In this document: positions 1-54,530 of the stretch, in pieces
How the letters are laid out: each line of letters starts with the position of its first letter
How positions within the stretch are numbered: the first letter of the stretch is position 1
Assembly: GCF_900142205.1 (NCBI RefSeq)
Contig: NZ_FRAA01000007.1
Location: 1 to 64,000 of the forward strand
From: Reichenbachiella agariperforans
GTDB taxonomy: Bacteria; Bacteroidota; Bacteroidia; Cytophagales; Cyclobacteriaceae
DNA: 64,000 bases
Direction of reading: 5' to 3'
The notes under the pieces: generated by a model
What the model saw: only the letters and a program-made list of their open reading frames with translations
Told to the model about the DNA's origin: nothing
Database searches by the model: none
Program-made: the position numbers and the translations under genes

Positions 1-3000
1 GAGCGGATTTCTCAGGTCGAGGGTCAGCCTTTGTCATGGACGGGTTTAACAGCGGCAGGAGTATATACTGTTCATGGTTACATTCCAGATATTATTGTGA
101 CAGAAGAGCCATGTGCAAGTGAGATGATAGGTAGTGCTACTATCGAGATAAGCGCTTTGCCTGAGGTTATTATTCCACAACGAGTTGAAACGTTTCCAAA
201 TCAAACTTTAGATTTACCAATTGCTAACTTATCTGGAGGGCAATGGTCTGTGGAAGGAGATCTTGTTTTTGGCCAAACGATATTTACCTCGGATTTGGGT
301 ATAGGGCTTCATATACTAACTTATTCATATCGAGAAGAAGGGTCAGTTTGTCCTGAGGTTGAGGGTGATTTGATCGTTTCTGTAATTCCTGTTCCTGAAC
401 TAAACATTGATAAATTTATTAGTGACTGCAAAGATATTACTTTAGGAGTGTTATCTACGAGCTCTGGGTATGACTCTTACACATGGTTTAGAGACGATGT
501 GGAGGTAAGTGAGTTAGAACAAGCTTCTGTTGATGTTGGTGAGCCGGGAACTTATAAAGTACTAATCGAAAATAATCTTGGACATAGCATTTTCACGAAT
601 GAGGTGGAAATGAAGTCTTTTATAGGAAGTGTTGACTTTAATTATGTCCATTCTATAAAATACAAAGATGCATATGAAGAGGAGATAGATTTACCTAGTA
701 CAAAAGAGAATATTACTTCATCTATTACATATTATGATGGACTTGGCGAGGAAAGACAAGTTGTTATGATAGGCAATTCTCATAGTGGCTTTGATGCGAT
801 AACACCATATGCATTAGATGGGTTTGGCAGAACTTCGAAGGGGTTTAAGTCATATGTCAGAAATGGCTTTGATGAGGGGTGCTATGATCCCAATGCCCTA
901 TCTCTCAATCAAAACTCAGGAGCAGTCTTCGATTATTATGCGGGATCACCTAATACGCCTGTAGACGCAATACCCTATTCGGAAACTATATACGAGCCTT
1001 CCCCCCTCAACAGAGTTGCGGCACAGTACGGCCCAGGAGAAGTATGGAGAAGAGATGGTAGACCTGTACTTTTCGAGTATTCCACAAATATAGAAGAAGA
1101 GGTAGTTTGGTGGGGAATAGTTTCGAGTAGTCTTACCAACCAAGGCTACTATGAGTCGGCTAGCCTTTATAAAAATACAACCATCGATGAAGAGCAGCAT
1201 AGGGTGATTGAGTACAAAAACCTCGAAGGACAGGTAGTTTTGAAGAAAGTGCAAGCCGATGAAAGTGCATCCGAATGGGCAGAGACCTACTACGTATATG
1301 ATGACTTTGGAAACCTTAGATTTGTATTGCCTCCCAAGTATTCAGCGAACTTAAATATTGCTGATTTTGACTCCCTCGCCTTCCAATATCATTATGACCA
1401 CCGCCAGCGCATGACCGAAAAGCGTGTGCCGGGCGCAGGATGGGTCTACATGGTCTATGACGATAGAGACCGACTGGTGCTGACTCAGGATGCCAATCAG
1501 CGAGCAAACAAGGAATGGCTCTTTACCAAATACGATGCCCTGAATCGTCCTGTGATTACGGGTATCTATACCCATGGCAGTGAAGTAGACCAGGCGACCA
1601 TGCAAGGTCTCATCGACCAGTTCTATGAAGATGCTGAGAGCAATACAGACGAATGGTATGAGGTTCAGGACAACAACGGAACATTCGGCTATACCAACCA
1701 ATCATTCCCCAAAACAGGTTTGGATCATCTATCAGTGATCTTCTACGACAACTATGGCTTTACCAGCATCGCGGACTGGGAGATAGATGAGGTAGATACC
1801 AGCTCAGAACCCACTGCCAAAACCTACGTGACGGGGACTATGACCAAAGTTCTGGGTATCGATTCTAGCCAGGATTGCCCTGAAGGAGAGGGGTGCCTGC
1901 ACGCCGATCAGGCGTGGAACCAAAGCCTGATTCTCTACGACAGCCGCTATCGTGTGGATGAGGTGGTCAACAAAGACTATCAAGGCAATACGGACCAAGT
2001 CGAGACAGACTACTATAGCATCGTCTATCCACTCGTAGTGGAGACCCGTCATGCCCACTATCATGCCGACAGTGATCAGACGACTACCATCACGGAGCAT
2101 TTCGACTATGATCATGCAGACCGACTGATGTCTGTCACGCATCAAATCAACGAAGAGACACCAGTGGTCATACTGACCAATGAATACAACGAACTCGGCG
2201 AACTGATCACTAAGAAGCTCCATCAAGAAAATCCCCCCTCAGAGGAGGGTGCGGAGGGTGTCTACAAACAAGAAATTGACTATGCCTATAATATCCGAGG
2301 TTGGCTGACGCATATTAATGACCCAGGGACGGACGATCCTTCGCGCTATTTCTCCATGCAGCTGAAGTATACGGATGCCACGCATGCTCAGTACAATGGC
2401 AATATCGGTGAGATCGACTGGACTAACCCCATGGAAACCGCTATCCTCAATAGCTATGACTATGCCTACGATCCGATGAACCGTCTCAACGAAGCGATGT
2501 ACTCCAGTACCAAAGCAGGCTTGGACTATGATGTGACTGGGATAGACTATGATCTCAATGGAAATATCCTGCACCTAAACCGACTGGGTGACAAAGACAA
2601 CGGCAGTGCAGGCAATCTGCCAGGCCAGAGCATCGACGAGTTGGTCTATGGCTATCAAGGCAACCAGCTGATCAAAGTTACAGATGATAGCGAATCAGAT
2701 ACTGGTTTTAAGGACGGAGCGGATCAGGACGAAGAATACCGCTATGACGCCAATGGCAACATGACGGTGGATCAAAACAAGGGCATCACCGAGATTACCT
2801 ACAATCACCTGAACTTACCAGTACGAGTGGTGAAATCCCCCCTAGAGGGGGGACAGGGGGGTGTCGAGATAGTGTATATCTACGACGCAGCAGGCGTAAA
2901 GCAAGCCCAGATTGTATATGAGGATGGTGAAGAAGCCAAACGCACCGACTACAAAGGCGCTTTCATCTATGAGACGCTAGCTGAGTTAGGCTTGTCCGCC

Positions 3001-4794
3001 GGGGCGGAGACATCCCTGCAATTCATCCAGCATGCCGAAGGCAGAGTGACTTATTCCCCCCTAGAGGGGGGACAGGGGGGTGTCTACGAATACCAATACC
3101 ACCTCAAAGACCACCTAGGCAATGTGCGAGCCACCTTCACGTCCGAGCCGAAGACCGAGCAAGCCTTGGCGACTATAGAAGAAGCAACCAACGACAACTT
3201 CGGAGACTATGACAAAGCCATGCGGATCAAAGCGGATCTCTTCAATCACACGACGGGTGGAGAATATGCTGTACGTCTCAATGGCTCTGATGACGAAGTG
3301 ATCGGCCTGTCCCGACAGCTACGAGTGAAGCCTGGAGATGTGATCAATCTAGAGGTCTATGCCAAGTATCTGGATGGAGATCAGTCAGGAGGCTGGACCT
3401 CTGCACTCAATACCCTAGTGGGACAGATCGCAGCTGCTAGTACTGGAGTAGTCTTCGAGGGTGCCAACTACGGTTCGGCGCAGCTACCCTTTGCAGACCT
3501 ACTGACAGGCAAGAGCGACCCGAGCACCGCACCGAAAGCTTACCTTAACTACCTGGTCTTCGACAACAACTACCAACCCATCCTAGAGCAGTCCGGTTAC
3601 CAGCAGATGAGCGAAGATGCCGCCGAGGACGGTACAGATGTCGCACACGAGCATTTGTCGCACAGCATAGCGATAGAGGAAGCAGGCTATGTGTATATTT
3701 ACCTATCGAACGAGAACGGGACGACCGATCCGATCGATGTGTTCTTTGACGATTTCAGGGTCGAACAGCAGTACAGTCCGATTGTACAGAAGGATGATTA
3801 TTATCCCTTTGGGTTGAGTTTTAATTCTTACAGCAATGTGGGGATGACTTCTCAATTGTTTAAGTATAACGCAGGTTCAGAGTACGATGTGAATTTAGGA
3901 TTCTATATGACTCAAAATAGAATGATGAATCCTGAGTTAGGTAGGTTTTGGGGAGTTGATGCGCTTGCTGACCTTTTTCCTTCTATGAGTCCGATGTCTT
4001 ATGCCTATAGCAACCCTATAAAGTTCAACGATCCTTTAGGATTAAATCCAGAAGGAGATGGAGTAGGTCCTCAGATATTGGATGAGGTAGTGGTAACTGC
4101 TGAAAAACTACCTGAAGATTACTCTGATTTAATTCAAAGCATAAATCCCTTAGAGAGAGCTGGAGGGATTGCTTTGAGTAAAGGTGATATTCGTCAAGTT
4201 CAGATGTATAGCGATCAATCCAACAACTTCTCCTATGGTGACTACCTTAAGGAAAAATATCGCCCCAATAAAATGGGGGATGCGTGGATGAAAATTGCGG
4301 CCTATAGTATTGGAGGGACTATGGTGGCTATTTATGGATCGCCGATGTTATTGAATTTACTTGGCGAGGGATCAGTTTCATTGTCTGCTTCCTCTATCAA
4401 AATGGCACTCTTTGGGACTACTGATTTAACTTCTAAGGCATATTTGACGAAGGCAGGTTTTAATATGTTTGTTGAGACAACAAATCAATTATTGACAGGT
4501 GACGCAAGTCAGTTGGATGTTTTTGATATTGGAGCACAAGGATTTCTGGGATTAAATACCCCAATAAGTGCGGGAGCTGGAGCTGTGTTTGATATTAAAC
4601 CTTTTGCCAGTGATTATAACTTTGTAAATCTAAATTCAGGATCAGCAGTCGATTTTGTGACTGGTTATGCGGCCGGGAAAGTTGGAGGTTTGGAAGTGAT
4701 AAAAGGGTCTGTTGCTAAACCATTGATTCAGTGGGGGGCTGATCTTTCTATGAAAGTGATTTCTGAAGGTTCTAAAAAAGCAATAGAAGAATGA
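1..4794 (+). CDS. RHS-repeat giant protein, 5' partial
   Basis: The reading frame is open from base 1, so the true start lies upstream; the visible part is about 1,597 codons. A DUF6443-like segment (Y-DGLG-R-Q pattern) lies near residue 235, followed by degenerate YD/RHS repeats. The RHS-associated core (GRFWGVDAL then SYAYSNPIKFNDPLGL) is near residues 1310-1345. After PLGL comes a unique tail of about 240 residues with Gly/Ala-rich hydrophobic stretches, as expected of a polymorphic toxin tip; no known toxin motif was recognised. The middle (about 1.4-3.8 kb) looks GC-richer than both ends, suggesting a mosaic. Three copies of a palindromic C6-TAGA-G6 type element are inserted in frame. 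The stop overlaps the next start as ATGA. RHS family: confident; toxin role: inferred. Confidence 0.9.
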   Translation, partial: ERISQVEGQPLSWTGLTAAGVYTVHGYIPDIIVTEEPCASEMIGSATIEISALPEVIIPQRVETFPNQTLDLPIANLSGGQWSVEGDLVFGQTIFTSDLGIGLHILTYSYREEGSVCPEVEGDLIVSVIPVPELNIDKFISDCKDITLGVLSTSSGYDSYTWFRDDVEVSELEQASVDVGEPGTYKVLIENNLGHSIFTNEVEMKSFIGSVDFNYVHSIKYKDAYEEEIDLPSTKENITSSITYYDGLGEERQVVMIGNSHSGFDAITPYALDGFGRTSKGFKSYVRNGFDEGCYDPNALSLNQNSGAVFDYYAGSPNTPVDAIPYSETIYEPSPLNRVAAQYGPGEVWRRDGRPVLFEYSTNIEEEVVWWGIVSSSLTNQGYYESASLYKNTTIDEEQHRVIEYKNLEGQVVLKKVQADESASEWAETYYVYDDFGNLRFVLPPKYSANLNIADFDSLAFQYHYDHRQRMTEKRVPGAGWVYMVYDDRDRLVLTQDANQRANKEWLFTKYDALNRPVITGIYTHGSEVDQATMQGLIDQFYEDAESNTDEWYEVQDNNGTFGYTNQSFPKTGLDHLSVIFYDNYGFTSIADWEIDEVDTSSEPTAKTYVTGTMTKVLGIDSSQDCPEGEGCLHADQAWNQSLILYDSRYRVDEVVNKDYQGNTDQVETDYYSIVYPLVVETRHAHYHADSDQTTTITEHFDYDHADRLMSVTHQINEETPVVILTNEYNELGELITKKLHQENPPSEEGAEGVYKQEIDYAYNIRGWLTHINDPGTDDPSRYFSMQLKYTDATHAQYNGNIGEIDWTNPMETAILNSYDYAYDPMNRLNEAMYSSTKAGLDYDVTGIDYDLNGNILHLNRLGDKDNGSAGNLPGQSIDELVYGYQGNQLIKVTDDSESDTGFKDGADQDEEYRYDANGNMTVDQNKGITEITYNHLNLPVRVVKSPLEGGQGGVEIVYIYDAAGVKQAQIVYEDGEEAKRTDYKGAFIYETLAELGLSAGAETSLQFIQHAEGRVTYSPLEGGQGGVYEYQYHLKDHLGNVRATFTSEPKTEQALATIEEATNDNFGDYDKAMRIKADLFNHTTGGEYAVRLNGSDDEVIGLSRQLRVKPGDVINLEVYAKYLDGDQSGGWTSALNTLVGQIAAASTGVVFEGANYGSAQLPFADLLTGKSDPSTAPKAYLNYLVFDNNYQPILEQSGYQQMSEDAAEDGTDVAHEHLSHSIAIEEAGYVYIYLSNENGTTDPIDVFFDDFRVEQQYSPIVQKDDYYPFGLSFNSYSNVGMTSQLFKYNAGSEYDVNLGFYMTQNRMMNPELGRFWGVDALADLFPSMSPMSYAYSNPIKFNDPLGLNPEGDGVGPQILDEVVVTAEKLPEDYSDLIQSINPLERAGGIALSKGDIRQVQMYSDQSNNFSYGDYLKEKYRPNKMGDAWMKIAAYSIGGTMVAIYGSPMLLNLLGEGSVSLSASSIKMALFGTTDLTSKAYLTKAGFNMFVETTNQLLTGDASQLDVFDIGAQGFLGLNTPISAGAGAVFDIKPFASDYNFVNLNSGSAVDFVTGYAAGKVGGLEVIKGSVAKPLIQWGADLSMKVISEGSKKAIEE
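2232..2262 (+). repeat. Degenerate in-frame palindromic insert, copy 1
   Basis: A C-run/G-run element related to copies 2 and 3 in the same gene but with several substitutions. It is translated as NPPSEEGAEGV inside the RHS spacer region. It is probably an older copy of the same dispersed element. Confidence 0.6.
2835..2865 (+). repeat. In-frame palindromic insert, copy 2
   Basis: C6-TAGA-G6-ACA-G6-TGTC. It is identical over about 30 bases to copy 3, is self-complementary at C6/G6, and is translated as SPLEGGQGGV. It adds about ten residues to the RHS protein without breaking the frame. Confidence 0.85.
3055..3084 (+). repeat. In-frame palindromic insert, copy 3
   Basis: A second exact copy of the element at 2835-2865, again in the same reading frame and again encoding SPLEGGQGGV. 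It lies 220 bases downstream of copy 2. Confidence 0.85.
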
Positions 4795-5262: not shown

Positions 5263-5833
5263 ATGGGTAGAAAATACGCCATTCGAGATCAGTTATCAGC
5301 TCATAGTGTGACTTTTACAATAGTCAACTGGATAGATATATTCATACGTGATATTTACAAAGAAGTGATTCTGTCCAGCTTGAAGCATTGTCAGGAAAAC
5401 AAACATCTACAAGTACATGCCTATTGCATCATGACGAGTCATATTCACCTCATTTTGAGTGTATCGGAAGGGGAATTGTCAGATGTAATTCGGGATTTCA
5501 AGAGTTTCACATCCAGACAGATCAAAGAAATCTTACAAGACAAAACCAATCCAGAGAGCAGACGAGAATGGTTGCTATGGATGTTTGAGCGAGCAGGAAA
5601 GAAAAATAAGCGAAACCAAGATTACCAATTTTGGCAACAACATAATCATCCCATAGAGTTGTCCACCAATGAGATGATAGATCAAAGACTGGAGTACCTG
5701 CCCGATCCGGCAGGCGGGTATACATTACAACCCAGTAGAGGCAGGGTTTGTATATAAGCCAGAAGACTGGGTGTGGAGTAGTGCCAGACAGTATGCAGGT
5801 GAACATGGTGAATTAGAGCTACGTTATCTGTAA
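5263..5833 (+). pseudogene. REP-associated transposase (RAYT/TnpA-REP), frameshifted
   Basis: Y1/HUH-like transposase of the RAYT group. The N-terminal part shows the metal-binding HxH motif (SHIHLIL, near residue 51) and the FKSFTSRQI segment; relatives often have Tyr where this reads Phe. The original frame ends early at 5757, but the C-terminal signature (EAGFVYKPEDWVWSSARQYAG) continues in the +1 frame to a TAA at 5831-5833. The break is caused by about 22 extra bases near 5700-5721 that look like the element's own REP sequence (CCCGATCCGGCAGGCGGG). The gene sits between nested inverted repeats, so the whole unit at 5151-5909 resembles a RAYT/REP mobile element. Family: confident. Inactive as read here, unless rescued by frameshifting. 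Confidence 0.88.
5700..5721 (+). repeat. REP-like insert disrupting the transposase gene
   Basis: Removing these roughly 22 bases joins GAGTAC to ATACATTACAACCC, restoring the conserved EYIHYNPVEAGFVY motif. The insert is GC-rich and resembles the flanking REP unit (CCTGCC...CCGG...CAGGCGGG). Confidence 0.7.
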
Positions 5834-6226: not shown

Positions 6227-6238
6227 GGGGTGCTCAGA

Positions 6239-6326
6239 CCACCTGTGGTTGGCGGCTCAACCACAGGTGGTCCGGGCGTCAACCACAGGTGATTGGAGTG
6301 CGAACCACAGGTGTTTGTATTTAACT
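6239..6326. repeat. 22-bp-period palindrome array of HU locus 1 (4 units)
   Basis: Palindrome cores start at 6239 (CCACCTGTGG), 6261 (CCACAGGTGG), 6283 (CCACAGGTGA) and 6305 (CCACAGGTGT), exactly 22 bases apart. Spacers are 12 bases and mostly unrelated, except that each of the last three cores is preceded by AA. A 22-base period keeps all sites on about the same helical face, as in cooperative operator or iteron arrays. It lies about 310 bases upstream of the HU-related start codon. Confidence 0.85.
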
Positions 6327-6633
6327 TTTTTTAACGTCATTCGTGGTTTTTTTGGATCGAAAATTGTTATTGAACTCTATATCTAATAGATGCACTGAAA
6401 AGGCCATTCGGTACACTCGCTTTTACAGCCCAGGCCCAGCCAAGTCGAGCACTACACTGTCGCGACCCAGCAAAGCAACACCCCTTTTTGTAAGTACATA
6501 CTTAGCAAAGCTCCAGACAAGCATTGTCGGCTTCTGCCAAGGTCTCCCTCAGAGAAGGACGCTGTCCGAACTGTGCTAAAGGGTTAGTTAAGCGATTCTC
6601 AAATTTTTGTTTAACCCTTTAAATATTAAAATT
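6327..6633. other. Gene-less leader region of HU locus 1
   Basis: About 300 bases without a convincing gene. Immediately before the ATG it carries TTTAACCCTTTAAAT (6610-6624), which is shared exactly with the second HU locus. No other structure was recognised; a 78-codon open frame here lacks any family resemblance. Confidence 0.6.
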
Positions 6634-7047
6634 ATGTCTGTGAAATTTAAAGCCATCCCCAAAGGCTACCCAGGAGTAGTCGGTGGAGGAGTCACTAAGT
6701 ATTATGCAAATATCGTAAGAGGCGAAAAGATTGATTTTCGGGATCTCTTGGTTGAGATCGAAGAGTTGAATGTCGTTCATCCCGGTGTTTTTCTAGCCGT
6801 GTTAGAAGCATTCCTGCGCAAAACCAACCAGCATCTGCTCAATGGTCGTGCGGTACATTTGGGTCAGTTAGGGACTTTTTATCCTTCCATCAGTAGTTCG
6901 TCTGCCGAAAGCGAGGATGAGGTCAGTAGCAACTCTATCCGAAGGTTCAAGATAATCTATCGCCCCAGTGCACTGCTGCAAGAGGGACTGGATCATGTGA
7001 AATTTGAAAAAGTATCTGATGCAAGTAGAGAGGAGAACGCTGCATAA
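6634..7047 (+). CDS. HU-related DNA-binding protein (DNABII family), copy 1
   Basis: 137 residues from the ATG at 6634, chosen because the second copy (54120) has the same start context and the same MSV N-terminus. It belongs to the HU-related (HU_rel) Bacteroidota DNABII proteins: a helical segment (FRDLLVEIEEL...FLAVLEAFLRKTNQHLLNG), then GRAVHLGQLGTFYPSI leading into the beta-arm, and a C-terminal extension ending HVKFEKVSDAS. Known role of the family: nucleoid-type DNA binding and bending. It is preceded by the private palindrome array and followed by a terminator. The array suggests it may bind its own upstream region; this is inference. Confidence 0.85.
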   Translation: MSVKFKAIPKGYPGVVGGGVTKYYANIVRGEKIDFRDLLVEIEELNVVHPGVFLAVLEAFLRKTNQHLLNGRAVHLGQLGTFYPSISSSSAESEDEVSSNSIRRFKIIYRPSALLQEGLDHVKFEKVSDASREENAA

Positions 7048-52399: not shown

Positions 52400-53530
52400 T
52401 TAATCATCATCAGATTCGTTGTTCGATTCTTCAATGAAATCTTCAAATTTCTTGTCTTTAAATCTTAGATGAAAAAATCTATCATCCGAAATGTCCTTTA
52501 TTGCCTTAATAATTGCCGTTTTAGTAGGTTCATTAAGTTTCTTGAATTCATTCCATTCGCCTTCCATGCGTTCCAAAAATCTTAATGGATATCTCATGAT
52601 AAAGAATTTTCTATCTTTACGAATTAAGTATGAAAAAGCTCTAGGTCCTTGAATACCATCGCTTTGTATTATTTCCTCAATTCCGATTTTCGATTTGAAT
52701 ATCGTTTCCCATCGAGAATTAGACATTAAATATTCTTCGTACTTATCAGGAGCTAAAACGGCTAGAGAGTCAATTAATCGTCTGAATCTTATAGCCCCAG
52801 ATGCAGTATCTCTAAGATCTTCACTGGAAATAGAAGAAAATAATGCAGCCTTTATATCAGCAAGTTCGTTTGCAACAAAATCCAATCTTCTAAATTCACC
52901 TTTCTTATTTTGTTGTTCTTGTAGCAATCTCTGGAAGTATGCAGCCCATTGCTTTTTTAAAAATATTTCAATGTCTTCTAACTTTGAAAATTCTACAATG
53001 CTGTTGTTTTCACTTCTTAACCTGATGAAATTAATGAATTCAAAAATGTATTGAGCTGTTTCTTTTTTTTCAATCGATGGAAATTCTATGTTCTTAATGA
53101 ATTCTTTATTCTTGTTTTTTTCATAGACGAAATGATCATGCATTACTCCAGAATCAACAAATGTGAATATTGGCAATCCTAGTTCAACGCATTTTAGAAT
53201 TTCAGCTTGGGTAACTGAGATATGTTCAACTGTCTCCCAAAACTTTACATTTCTGCTTTTAGGTTTAAGCCCTTCAATATCTAGTTCATCTAGAGTTTGA
53301 GGAATTGCTTCACCACCAAACCTTGAGCCAATTATTAGCACAGCCATGTCGCAATTCTCGACTTCCTTTACACAACTGATGTGAGTATGTGTTCTAGGGT
53401 CATACAGAATGTCTGAGTTATCGCTCATAACTGGTTCATATCCCATTTTTTGAATGAATGACCGAACCTGTGACCTAACAATTGATAGATCGTAACAGGT
53501 AGATGATAATAATATCTTAAGATTAGCCAT
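52400..53530 (-). CDS. DUF4062-domain protein, possible conflict/defence effector
   Basis: 376 residues. N-terminal DUF4062 (about 1-110): KILLSSTCYDLSIVRSQV, then CVKEVENCDMAVLIIGSRFGG. The fold is thought to be TIR/nucleotide-binding-like, and the domain is often found at the N-terminus of NTPase-type conflict proteins. The remaining 260 residues are helical and end in an acidic tail; no NTPase is present here. AT-rich composition and position between a toxin remnant and an HU locus suggest an acquired gene. The 26-bp palindrome upstream is a likely operator. Defence role: inference. Confidence 0.78.
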   Translation of the reverse strand: MANLKILLSSTCYDLSIVRSQVRSFIQKMGYEPVMSDNSDILYDPRTHTHISCVKEVENCDMAVLIIGSRFGGEAIPQTLDELDIEGLKPKSRNVKFWETVEHISVTQAEILKCVELGLPIFTFVDSGVMHDHFVYEKNKNKEFIKNIEFPSIEKKETAQYIFEFINFIRLRSENNSIVEFSKLEDIEIFLKKQWAAYFQRLLQEQQNKKGEFRRLDFVANELADIKAALFSSISSEDLRDTASGAIRFRRLIDSLAVLAPDKYEEYLMSNSRWETIFKSKIGIEEIIQSDGIQGPRAFSYLIRKDRKFFIMRYPLRFLERMEGEWNEFKKLNEPTKTAIIKAIKDISDDRFFHLRFKDKKFEDFIEESNNESDDD

Positions 53531-53605: not shown

Positions 53606-53792
53606 AATTGTTTTTCTCTTCTCGAATGATGCTGCGGGAAGCGGACTGCTGATCGGCTTGGTGAGGCCAAACTAGTATTTCCTATCGATATTTCCCAAGG
53701 CTACAAGCAAATCCCTTGGTATATCACAAAACGCTATGAGGTGGGTGCTATATTTTGGGTTGGGAGGGGGGTGAGACCTGACCTGTCCAACC

Positions 53793-53924
53793 TAAGCTTA
53801 GTTCGGCTCCCATGTTGCCTTACCTCAGGGTCGAGGTAAGCTTAGTTTCACCCTGTAGTAAGCTTAGGTTGGGGCTCTGGTAAGCTTACCTTCAGGCTCA
53901 GGTAAGCTAAGCTTTTGTTCAAAG
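53793..53924. repeat. 22-bp-period palindrome array of HU locus 2 (6 units)
   Basis: Unit starts at 53793, 53815, 53837, 53859, 53881 and 53903, each 22 bases apart. Cores: TAAGCTTA in units 1, 3, 4 and 5; TTGCCTTA in unit 2 (half-site kept) and TAAGCTAA in unit 6. Spacers of 14 bases differ. The layout equals that of HU locus 1 but with a different palindrome. It lies about 200 bases before the HU-related start. Confidence 0.87.
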
Positions 53925-53936
53925 CGCATAAAGCCT

Positions 53937-53967
53937 GCTCAAATGCCTTTTTAGAAGGTTTTTGAGC
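53937..53967 (+). repeat. 31-bp conserved inverted-repeat block of HU locus 2
   Basis: GCTCAAATGCCT, ten bases, then TTTTTGAGC; same layout as 6196-6226 on the other strand. Relative to its array the block has the same side and orientation in both loci, but the array-block unit is inverted relative to the HU gene. Confidence 0.75.
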
Positions 53968-54094
53968 AATGAAAAGGCTGTGGTTTTTTAACGTTTTTTG
54001 GCAGAATCAGCCTTCCTTTTGGCATCATACTTGTCTTTAACATGACAAATCCCACACAGAGCGCTCCGTTAGGATTCTTATCACAGTTTTATTT

Positions 54095-54109
54095 TTTAAC
54101 CCTTTAAAT
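54095..54109 (+). promoter_or_regulatory. Shared 15-bp element before the HU start
   Basis: TTTAACCCTTTAAAT is identical to 6610-6624 of locus 1 and lies at nearly the same distance (10 versus 9 bases) from the ATG. Promoter or leader function is likely. Confidence 0.6.
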
Positions 54110-54119
54110 TTTATCAATT

Positions 54120-54530
54120 ATGTCAGTACAGTATAAAGTCACGGAGCGTATCAACCCAAATGATGTTACCCTCCCCAAGAAGTATTATGCACGAATCATC
54201 AATGGCGATGATGTCAGTTTTGAGGAACTGGTCGGTATCATCAGCAAAGTATCCAGTTTGAACTACGGCACGGTGCTGGGTGCGATCGGTACCTTGCTGG
54301 AGGTGATCGAGATGCAGCTTGCATTTGGTAGACAAGTGAGGCTGAGCAACCTGGGTACCTTGTTTTTGACCCTGAATAGCGAAGGGGTAGAGCGCCCAGA
54401 GGAGTACCGTAGCGACAGGATCAAACAGGCTCGTATCAGGTTCAGACCCGGCGCAAGGCTGAAGCGTTTGGCCAAAACGCTAAAGTATGAGAAAGTAAGC
54501 ACGGCCAGCGATGTAGCGCCAGCCCCATAA
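54120..54530 (+). CDS. HU-related DNA-binding protein (DNABII family), copy 2
   Basis: 136 residues. Same layout as copy 1: MSVQYKV, a helical part (SFEELVGIISKVSSLNYGTV ... in pieces), ALGRQVRLSNLGTL-type turn (FGRQVRLSNLGTLFLTL), then IRFRPGARLKRLAKTLKYEKVSTAS. The two copies share the C-terminal KFEKVS/KYEKVS motif but are clearly diverged. Preceded by its own palindrome array, followed by a terminator. Confidence 0.87.
   Translation: MSVQYKVTERINPNDVTLPKKYYARIINGDDVSFEELVGIISKVSSLNYGTVLGAIGTLLEVIEMQLAFGRQVRLSNLGTLFLTLNSEGVERPEEYRSDRIKQARIRFRPGARLKRLAKTLKYEKVSTASDVAPAP

What the first reader, a model, noticed from the sequence alone, without database searches (positions are those of the whole stretch)
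53793..53924. HU locus 2: six units of a different palindrome, again 22-bp period
Units at 53793 to 53903 step by 22 bases with TAAGCTTA cores. The same architecture as locus 1 with unrelated sequence suggests that each HU-related protein has its own recognition array: a specific, not general, DNA-binding role for this DNABII branch.
Basis: partly seen in the sequence, partly recalled or inferred. Interest (0 to 1): 0.85.

Follow-up and report, generated by a model that had tools for sequence, protein, structure and literature searches.

The report
HU-type genes with matching palindrome arrays
Upstream of an HU-like DNA-binding gene lies a row of short palindromes spaced two DNA turns apart; related genes carry the same layout with other palindromes, and similar rows are scattered through the genome, which suggests that such proteins each have their own set of DNA sites.

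Summary
Six units start at 53793, 53815, 53837, 53859, 53881 and 53903; four carry an exact TAAGCTTA core, two are degenerate. In the 64-kb window only two places stand out as 22-bp palindrome arrays (80 and 79; next 60; 60 Markov sequences at most 65). Each lies upstream of one of the window's two HU-HIG genes.

Of 55 HU-HIG genes examined in the family, 30 pass the cut-off; none of 20 canonical HU genes does. Palindromes differ between paralogues, and similar proteins tend to have similar ones (Mantel r 0.18, 20 of 5000 permutations). Arrays are also dispersed intergenically. One class occurs only in the 3 of 42 genomes with the matching protein clade. A search of genome contigs with one palindrome pair hit 8 stretches, 7 in Bacteroidota; four of five such genomes (one known before) hold an HU-HIG gene with that or a near palindrome upstream.

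Best reading: sequence-specific HU-HIG dimers bind their own phased arrays. Binding is inferred. Against a strict one-to-one code: orphan arrays, shared cores, HU-HIG clades without arrays. P. gingivalis BrickBuilt repeats may be the same kind.

The parts
53793..53910 (.). Array 2: six 22-bp-period palindrome units (cores at 53793, 53815 degenerate, 53837, 53859, 53881, 53903 degenerate)
   Evidence: read directly; score 79 against a Markov maximum of 65
54120..54530 (+). HU-HIG gene (136 aa), HU fold with N-terminal beta extension and short arm
   Evidence: Pfam PF18291 1.4e-26, TIGR01201, AlphaFold2 mean pLDDT 90.7
54020..54034 (+). sigma54-type -24/-12 element TGG-N8-TTG (TGGCATCATACTTGT) between array and gene
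   Evidence: TGG-N8-TTG[CT] in 15 of 30 array genes, other spacings from 3 to 15 in 0-3; seen in the clade alignment of 7 leaders
54058..54119 (+). conserved leader (GAGCGCTC..GTTAGGATT and a CTTTAAAT-type stretch before ATG)
   Evidence: alignment of 7 leaders of the clade
53619..53975 (.). dispersed repeat that includes array 2; of the ten other TAAGCTTA arrays of this genome four share 327-440 bp with this region and four share 155-216 bp
6238..6315 (.). Array 1: four 22-bp-period units, core ACCACAGGTGGT-like
   Evidence: score 80
6634..7047 (+). HU-HIG gene of locus 1 (137 aa)
   Evidence: 33% identical to the locus-2 protein; PF18291 92.4 bits; TIGR01201 below its cut-off, 54.3 against 68.6
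6353..6367 (+). sigma54-type element of locus 1 (TGGATCGAAAATTGT)

Best explanation
The HU-HIG protein is a sequence-specific relative of HU/IHF. Its two-fold dimer reads a palindrome of about 10-18 bp, chiefly through the tip of its short beta arm. Because the units are two helical turns apart (22 bp), four to six dimers would line up on one face of the DNA, bend or wrap it together, and so control the HU-HIG gene. In several clades a sigma54-type promoter element lies between array and gene; in another clade the array lies close before the start codon. Paralogues have diverged in arm tip and palindrome, so that one genome holds several partly private protein-site sets. Copies of the arrays have spread as intergenic repeats and would give each protein further sites around the chromosome. 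SHOWN: arrays, dominant period, position, dispersal, co-occurrence of two array classes with protein clades, high variation of the arm tip in clades whose cores vary. INFERRED: binding, bending, autoregulation, use of the sigma54-type element, any role of the dispersed copies.
For: Period 22 scores at least 67 in 30 of 55 HU-HIG upstream regions; 20 canonical HU plus L007 reach at most 63 at period 22 and 66 at any period; the pooled null of other periods has its 99% point at 67.1, so about one region in a hundred would pass by chance. Window: two arrays, two HU-HIG genes, nothing else. Protein distance and core distance correlate (r 0.18; 20 of 5000 permutations reach it), and for 17 of 26 proteins the nearest core belongs to one of the two nearest proteins (tree). 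AAGTCTGCGCAGACTT arrays occur in 3 of 42 genomes, those with that protein clade, 0 in 39 others, reversed-pattern control 0. AGATACGTATCT arrays occur in 4 of 42 genomes, all with the KVVSKRP clade. Both patterns came from arrays already known at some of these genes; the dispersed copies in G039 and G067 and the absences are what the searches added. TAAGCTTA pairs: G000, G001, G004 have 37, 15, 16 forward matches; the 5 other genomes of the genus are at or below control. Pattern search over genome contigs: 7 of 8 stretches are Bacteroidota; HU-HIG genes with that or a near core upstream in 4 of 5 Bacteroidota genomes, one of which appears to be G067, known before. Where cores vary, the arm tip varies much more than the helices (0.54 against 0.20); in the clade with a near-constant core it does not (0.48 against 0.62). 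Predominant 22-bp spacing, and G:T against A:C dyad mismatches of 69 to 59 in gene-oriented arrays, fit DNA binding.
Against: No binding data. 25 of 55 HU-HIG genes in the family, 17 of 17 loci from other families and 6 of 6 examined plasmid-record loci (one at 66) do not reach the array cut-off. 3 of 5 arrays in a 400-kb stretch have no HU-HIG with that core in this genome. G078 has a KVVSKRP-clade protein but no match to that clade's pattern; its own core differs. G322 has an array but no HU-HIG match at E 1e-6. The AAGTCTGC units often combine different half-sites: perfect palindromes are 12% against 18% expected from free combination, and single arrays of this class have one-sided G:T or A:C mismatches, for example 8 to 1. 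L018 mixes two cores. Strong arrays of 23 and 24 bp exist, and the other-period null reaches 78 once. Arm tips are exposed and may vary for other reasons; clades are small. The Mantel correlation is weak. The 55 genes include near-identical orthologues.
Confidence: 0.6

Rival explanations
1. The arrays are primarily mobile intergenic repeats (MITE- or BIME-like). HU-HIG is either a helper of their spread or a silencer of them, and the copy upstream of the HU-HIG gene is where the element and its partner meet.
For: 11 TAAGCTTA arrays counted in this genome; of the ten besides array 2, eight share 155-440 bp with it, flanks or spacers included, and one place has two copies in tandem. AAGTCTGC arrays share mosaic flanks. 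In a Bacteroidales MAG an array is enclosed by inverted repeats (L214, seen by eye). P. gingivalis BrickBuilt is described as a MITE.
Against: No transposase or target-site duplication was identified here. Arrays of related HU-HIG genes in different genera keep core and 22-bp phase while spacers differ. The GATACGTATC matches of G094 lie only at its HU-HIG gene, and the L001 array has no copy found in 8 genomes.
Confidence: 0.2
2. The arrays are upstream activating sites of sigma54 enhancer-binding proteins, and HU-HIG is only the regulated gene.
For: A TGG-N8-TTG[CT] element lies 43-263 bp downstream of the last scored unit in 15 of 30 array genes, other spacings 0-3; tandem palindromic sites in that position are usual for such activators (recalled).
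Against: Dispersed arrays are not clearly enriched for the element (5 of 34; 2.6 expected; other spacings 1-4). The KVVSKRP-clade genes have arrays but no such element. A different activator would be needed for each core.
Confidence: 0.1
3. REP elements mobilised by a REP-associated tyrosine transposase, which happens to lie near array 1 (5263-5754).
For: A RAYT-like gene lies about 0.5 kb from array 1 and another close to the L002 array.
Against: RAYT matches occur in 8 of 8 genomes of the genus (above the curated cut-off in 6), including the five without arrays above control level. A separate short repeat near the RAYT beside L002 recurs on both sides of a G007 RAYT.
Confidence: 0.03
4. The arrays act as RNA: a transcribed multi-hairpin leader.
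For: Self-complementary units can pair with each other. Single AAGTCTGC arrays have one-sided wobble-type mismatches, for example G:T 8 to A:C 1, though these arrays are largely copies of each other.
Against: Predominantly fixed 22-bp spacing; no strand asymmetry over the gene-oriented arrays, 69 to 59; dispersed arrays lie in all gap types, 18 tandem, 9 divergent, 7 convergent.
Confidence: 0.05

Closest known systems
BrickBuilt repeats of Porphyromonas gingivalis (PMC4596501; abstract, outline and sections 5 and 9 read)
   Same: Tandem repeats of near-equal period (23 nt), 19 intergenic dispersed copies with leader and tail; Table 1 lists BrickBuilt_14 beside PGN_0872, a DNA-binding protein (PF00216).
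   Different: The authors call it a minisatellite MITE; the terms palindrom, histone, HU protein and IHF do not occur in the held main text. The unit sequence was not seen, so palindromy is untested; whether PGN_0872 is HU-HIG is unknown.
IHF and HU (DNABII), solved structures
   Same: HU fold; profile match to HU/IHF chains and fold matches.
   Different: Short arm without the long ribbon, N-terminal beta extension, tandem 22-bp palindromic sites with paralogue-specific cores.
BVU_2165, PDB 4fmr (Bacteroides vulgatus)
   Same: Best fold match, TM 0.65 by query length.
   Different: 13% identity; a longer chain (about 235 residues); described only as a putative DNA-binding protein.
REP/BIME elements and RAYT
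   Same: Dispersed intergenic palindrome mosaics said to be bound by host proteins (start of the abstract of PMC2817692, seen in the listing only).
   Different: Here the partner is a small HU-like gene, the main period is 22 bp, and RAYT occurrence does not follow the arrays.

Membership tests
HU-HIG (PF18291) | profile match over the full length above cut-off | tested here: met
   1-125 of 125, 93.5 bits against 26.2
Canonical HU/IHF | HU fold | tested here: met
   AlphaFold2 model and Foldseek
Canonical HU/IHF | Pfam Bac_DNA_binding above cut-off | tested here: not met
   20.3 bits against 22.4
Canonical HU/IHF | long beta-ribbon arm | tested here: not met
   in the model strands 79-87 and 101-110 are joined by a 13-residue tip
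Array-bearing HU-HIG | 22-bp palindrome array upstream of the gene | tested here: met
   score 79
Array-bearing HU-HIG | protein binds its own array | not testable with these tools
   needs EMSA or ChIP
BrickBuilt | 23-nt unit with leader, tail and inverted-repeat ends | tested here: inconclusive
   22-nt unit here; shared flanks exist but inverted-repeat ends were not seen at this locus and were not searched for systematically
REP/RAYT | occurrence follows the RAYT gene | tested here: not met
   RAYT matches in 8 of 8 genomes, TAAGCTTA arrays above control in 3
sigma54 upstream activating site | array always paired with a -24/-12 element | tested here: not met
   5 of 34 dispersed arrays, 2.6 expected

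The most novel reading that the evidence does not exclude
Bacteroidota hold a family of private-address nucleoid proteins: each HU-HIG paralogue reads its own palindrome, seeds phased arrays of it at its own promoter and around the chromosome, and changes address by altering the arm tip. The genome would be partitioned by several parallel HU-like systems, and known repeats such as BrickBuilt would be their sites.
Probability: 0.35. Interest if true: 0.9.

Novelty: new variant of a known kind. Interest (0 to 1): 0.78.

Why it matters
HU proteins are thought of as largely unspecific (recalled). A large, little-studied branch with several specific site sets per genome would give dozens of natural protein-site pairs for learning how an HU fold reads sequence. 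It would also suggest a function for dispersed repeats in Bacteroidota, and can be tested with small proteins and short DNA. Paper searches for HU-HIG, PF18291, CCDC81 with bacteroidetes, DNABII with palindromic 22 bp, HU-like with repeats, TIGR01201, and 22-bp intergenic repeats listed nothing that by title or abstract start describes this; the listed papers were not read, and most subscription journals are not held.

Tried and rejected
Rfam at gathering scores found only a tRNA in the window. A sigmaA-type promoter TTG-N17..23-TAnnTTTG between array and gene: 0 of 30, 1.0 expected. RNA pairing: no wobble asymmetry over the gene-oriented arrays, but one-sided mismatches within single arrays of one class. 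RAYT: rejected as cause. Promoter-only role: dispersed arrays lie in convergent gaps too, 7 of 34, against 3 of 34 control gaps. The IMG/VR hit L266 is three near-identical 22-bp direct repeats without an HU-HIG match; GATACGTATC pairs in viral contigs: 0. The Rhizobium hit L211 has two units, and its genome's only match to the HU-HIG profile looks like a canonical HU. A first array detector resting on repetition alone missed L015, L018 and L080 and was replaced by the dyad score, which in turn misses arrays visible by eye at L001 and L073. The P0001 scan of genome contigs gave no relatives.

Full report
OBSERVATION. Array 2 was read directly: cores at 53793, 53815, 53837, 53859, 53881 and 53903, four exact TAAGCTTA and two degenerate. 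A score combining dyad symmetry within units and identity between four units (maximum 96) was scanned over the whole window. At period 22 the only two outstanding places are array 1 (80) and array 2 (79); the third is 60, other periods from 14 to 40 reach at most 65, and 60 Markov sequences of 64 kb reach at most 65. The window holds two HU-HIG genes, each downstream of one array.

GENERALITY. The window's genome (G000, 5.03 Mb) has eight PF18291 matches, six of them over the full profile. All six show a 22-bp array upstream by eye; five pass the later cut-off of 67 and L001 has 64. From the genus (8 genomes) and the family (98 genomes; stretches), 55 HU-HIG upstream regions were examined, near-identical orthologues included: 30 score at least 67 at period 22. 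The 20 canonical HU controls plus L007 reach at most 63 at period 22 and 66 at any period from 14 to 40. A pooled null of other periods (1887 values) has its 99% point at 67.1 and a maximum of 78. L047 has a strong 23-bp array. HU-HIG clades without arrays exist. Outside the family, 17 of 17 HU-HIG loci of the phylum search scored below the cut-off, and so did 6 of 6 examined loci of the 13 plasmid records matched, one at 66.

CORES FOLLOW PROTEINS. Cores include GTAAGCTTAC, GGTAACGTTACC, GTTGCGCAAC, ACCACACGTGGT, AAGTCTGCGCAGACTT, AAACCCGCGCGGGTTT, AGATACGTATCT and CTAGCGCTAG. On the tree, related proteins often share or nearly share cores. With 26 proteins left after thinning at 85% identity, the Mantel correlation is 0.18, reached by 20 of 5000 permutations; for 17 of 26 the nearest core belongs to one of the two nearest proteins. 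In the clade whose cores vary, the arm tip (residues 88-100) is the most variable part before the C-terminal tail, 0.54 against 0.20 in the helices; in the clade with GATA..TATC cores the values are 0.48 and 0.62. The model has an HU fold with a short arm; the best solved match is 4fmr.

DISPERSAL. TAAGCTTA pairs form 11 arrays in G000, two upstream of intact HU-HIG genes and one near a broken copy. Of the ten besides array 2, four share 327-440 bp with its surroundings, four share 155-216 bp, and the arrays of L003 and L122 are not close copies. AAGTCTGC arrays and CACGTG-type arrays are dispersed as well; no copy of the L001 array was found in the 8 genomes. Of 34 loci with dispersed arrays, 31 have the array outside ORFs of 100 aa or more; 18 lie in tandem, 9 in divergent and 7 in convergent gaps; 34 control gaps were 27, 4 and 3. 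In a 400-kb stretch not chosen for arrays, although it held one already known, period 22 gives 5 places at 67 or more and every other period from 15 to 35 gives 0 to 3. None of the five is at an HU-HIG gene, and three have cores (TAGATATATATCTA twice, CTTGCGCAAG) not carried upstream of any HU-HIG gene of this genome.

CO-OCCURRENCE. The AAGTCTGC pair occurs in G000, G001 and G039 only, of 42 genomes; these are the three in which that HU-HIG clade was seen. The AGATACGTATCT pair occurs in G001, G039, G067 and G094 only, all with the KVVSKRP clade; G078, whose member has another core, has none. The patterns were drawn from arrays already seen at some of these genes, so the gene-adjacent matches are not new evidence; the further copies in G039 and G067 and the zeros elsewhere are. 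The 42 genomes were chosen by me: 21 of the genus or with full-length HU-HIG, 21 other family members. The other five genomes of the genus show TAAGCTTA pairs only at or below control level.

PATTERN SEARCH OVER ALL SPECIES. An exact GATACGTATC-N12-GATACGTATC search of genome contigs gave 8 stretches in 6 genomes: five Bacteroidota and one Rhizobium. In four of the five Bacteroidota genomes an HU-HIG gene has this core or a near one upstream: L216, L217, L226, and the gene beside L209, which has only two such units and whose array otherwise fits a 21-bp period. L216 carries the same protein and array as L046, so its genome appears to be G067, already known; that leaves three of four as the independent count. 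G322 shows an array but no HU-HIG match at E 1e-6. Of 30 HU-profile loci read in these genomes (36 matches listed, canonical HU included), 9 pass the cut-off, among them L218, L222, L225, L235, L236 and L244 with other cores. L217 and L226 do not look like the KVVSKRP clade by eye, so the same core may have arisen more than once.

PROMOTER. Between array and start codon, TGG-N8-TTG[CT] occurs in 15 of 30 array genes, other spacings from 3 to 15 in 0 to 3. In the last 300 bp before the gene it occurs in 2 of 25 other HU-HIG and 5 of 20 canonical HU genes, the latter no more than at other spacings. The 15 fall into four groups of homologues (three clades and L067), so they are not 15 independent events; the eight spacer bases differ between groups. 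The spacing equals the sigma54 -24/-12 promoter (recalled). No sigmaA-type promoter was found.

READING. The simplest account is that HU-HIG dimers bind phased palindromes; every binding step is inferred. The mobile-repeat account is not exclusive of it: the arrays do spread, and something may silence or use them. BrickBuilt of P. gingivalis, with 19 dispersed 23-nt elements and one copy beside a PF00216 gene (sections 5 and 9 of PMC4596501), looks like the same kind, but its unit sequence was not seen.

Noticed in passing
window 5263-5754: RAYT-like transposase gene near array 1, below the curated cut-off; a second lies near the L002 array with its own short repeat.
   Followed up: partly
L214 3357-3511: In a Bacteroidales MAG a five-unit GATACGTATC-type array is enclosed by inverted repeats of about 29 bp, like a MITE; similar flanks stand at L209. 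Seen by eye only.
   Followed up: no
L184 about 2517: An AAGTCTGC-type array in G001 contains one AAAGATACGTATCTTT unit, the core of another HU-HIG clade.
   Followed up: no
L015 upstream array: The first spacer is the reverse complement of the fourth, as if part of the array had been copied inverted.
   Followed up: no
L229, L232, L047: HU-HIG genes with strong arrays of period 24, 23 and 23 bp.
   Followed up: no
L008 2237-2330: Repeated GCCTTAGAAGGC-like palindromes at about 23-bp spacing downstream of another HU-like gene.
   Followed up: no
window 31-4794: Large ORF that looks like an RHS-type gene upstream of locus 1, by eye only.
   Followed up: no
window 52400-53530: DUF4062 gene on the minus strand next to locus 2.
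   Followed up: no
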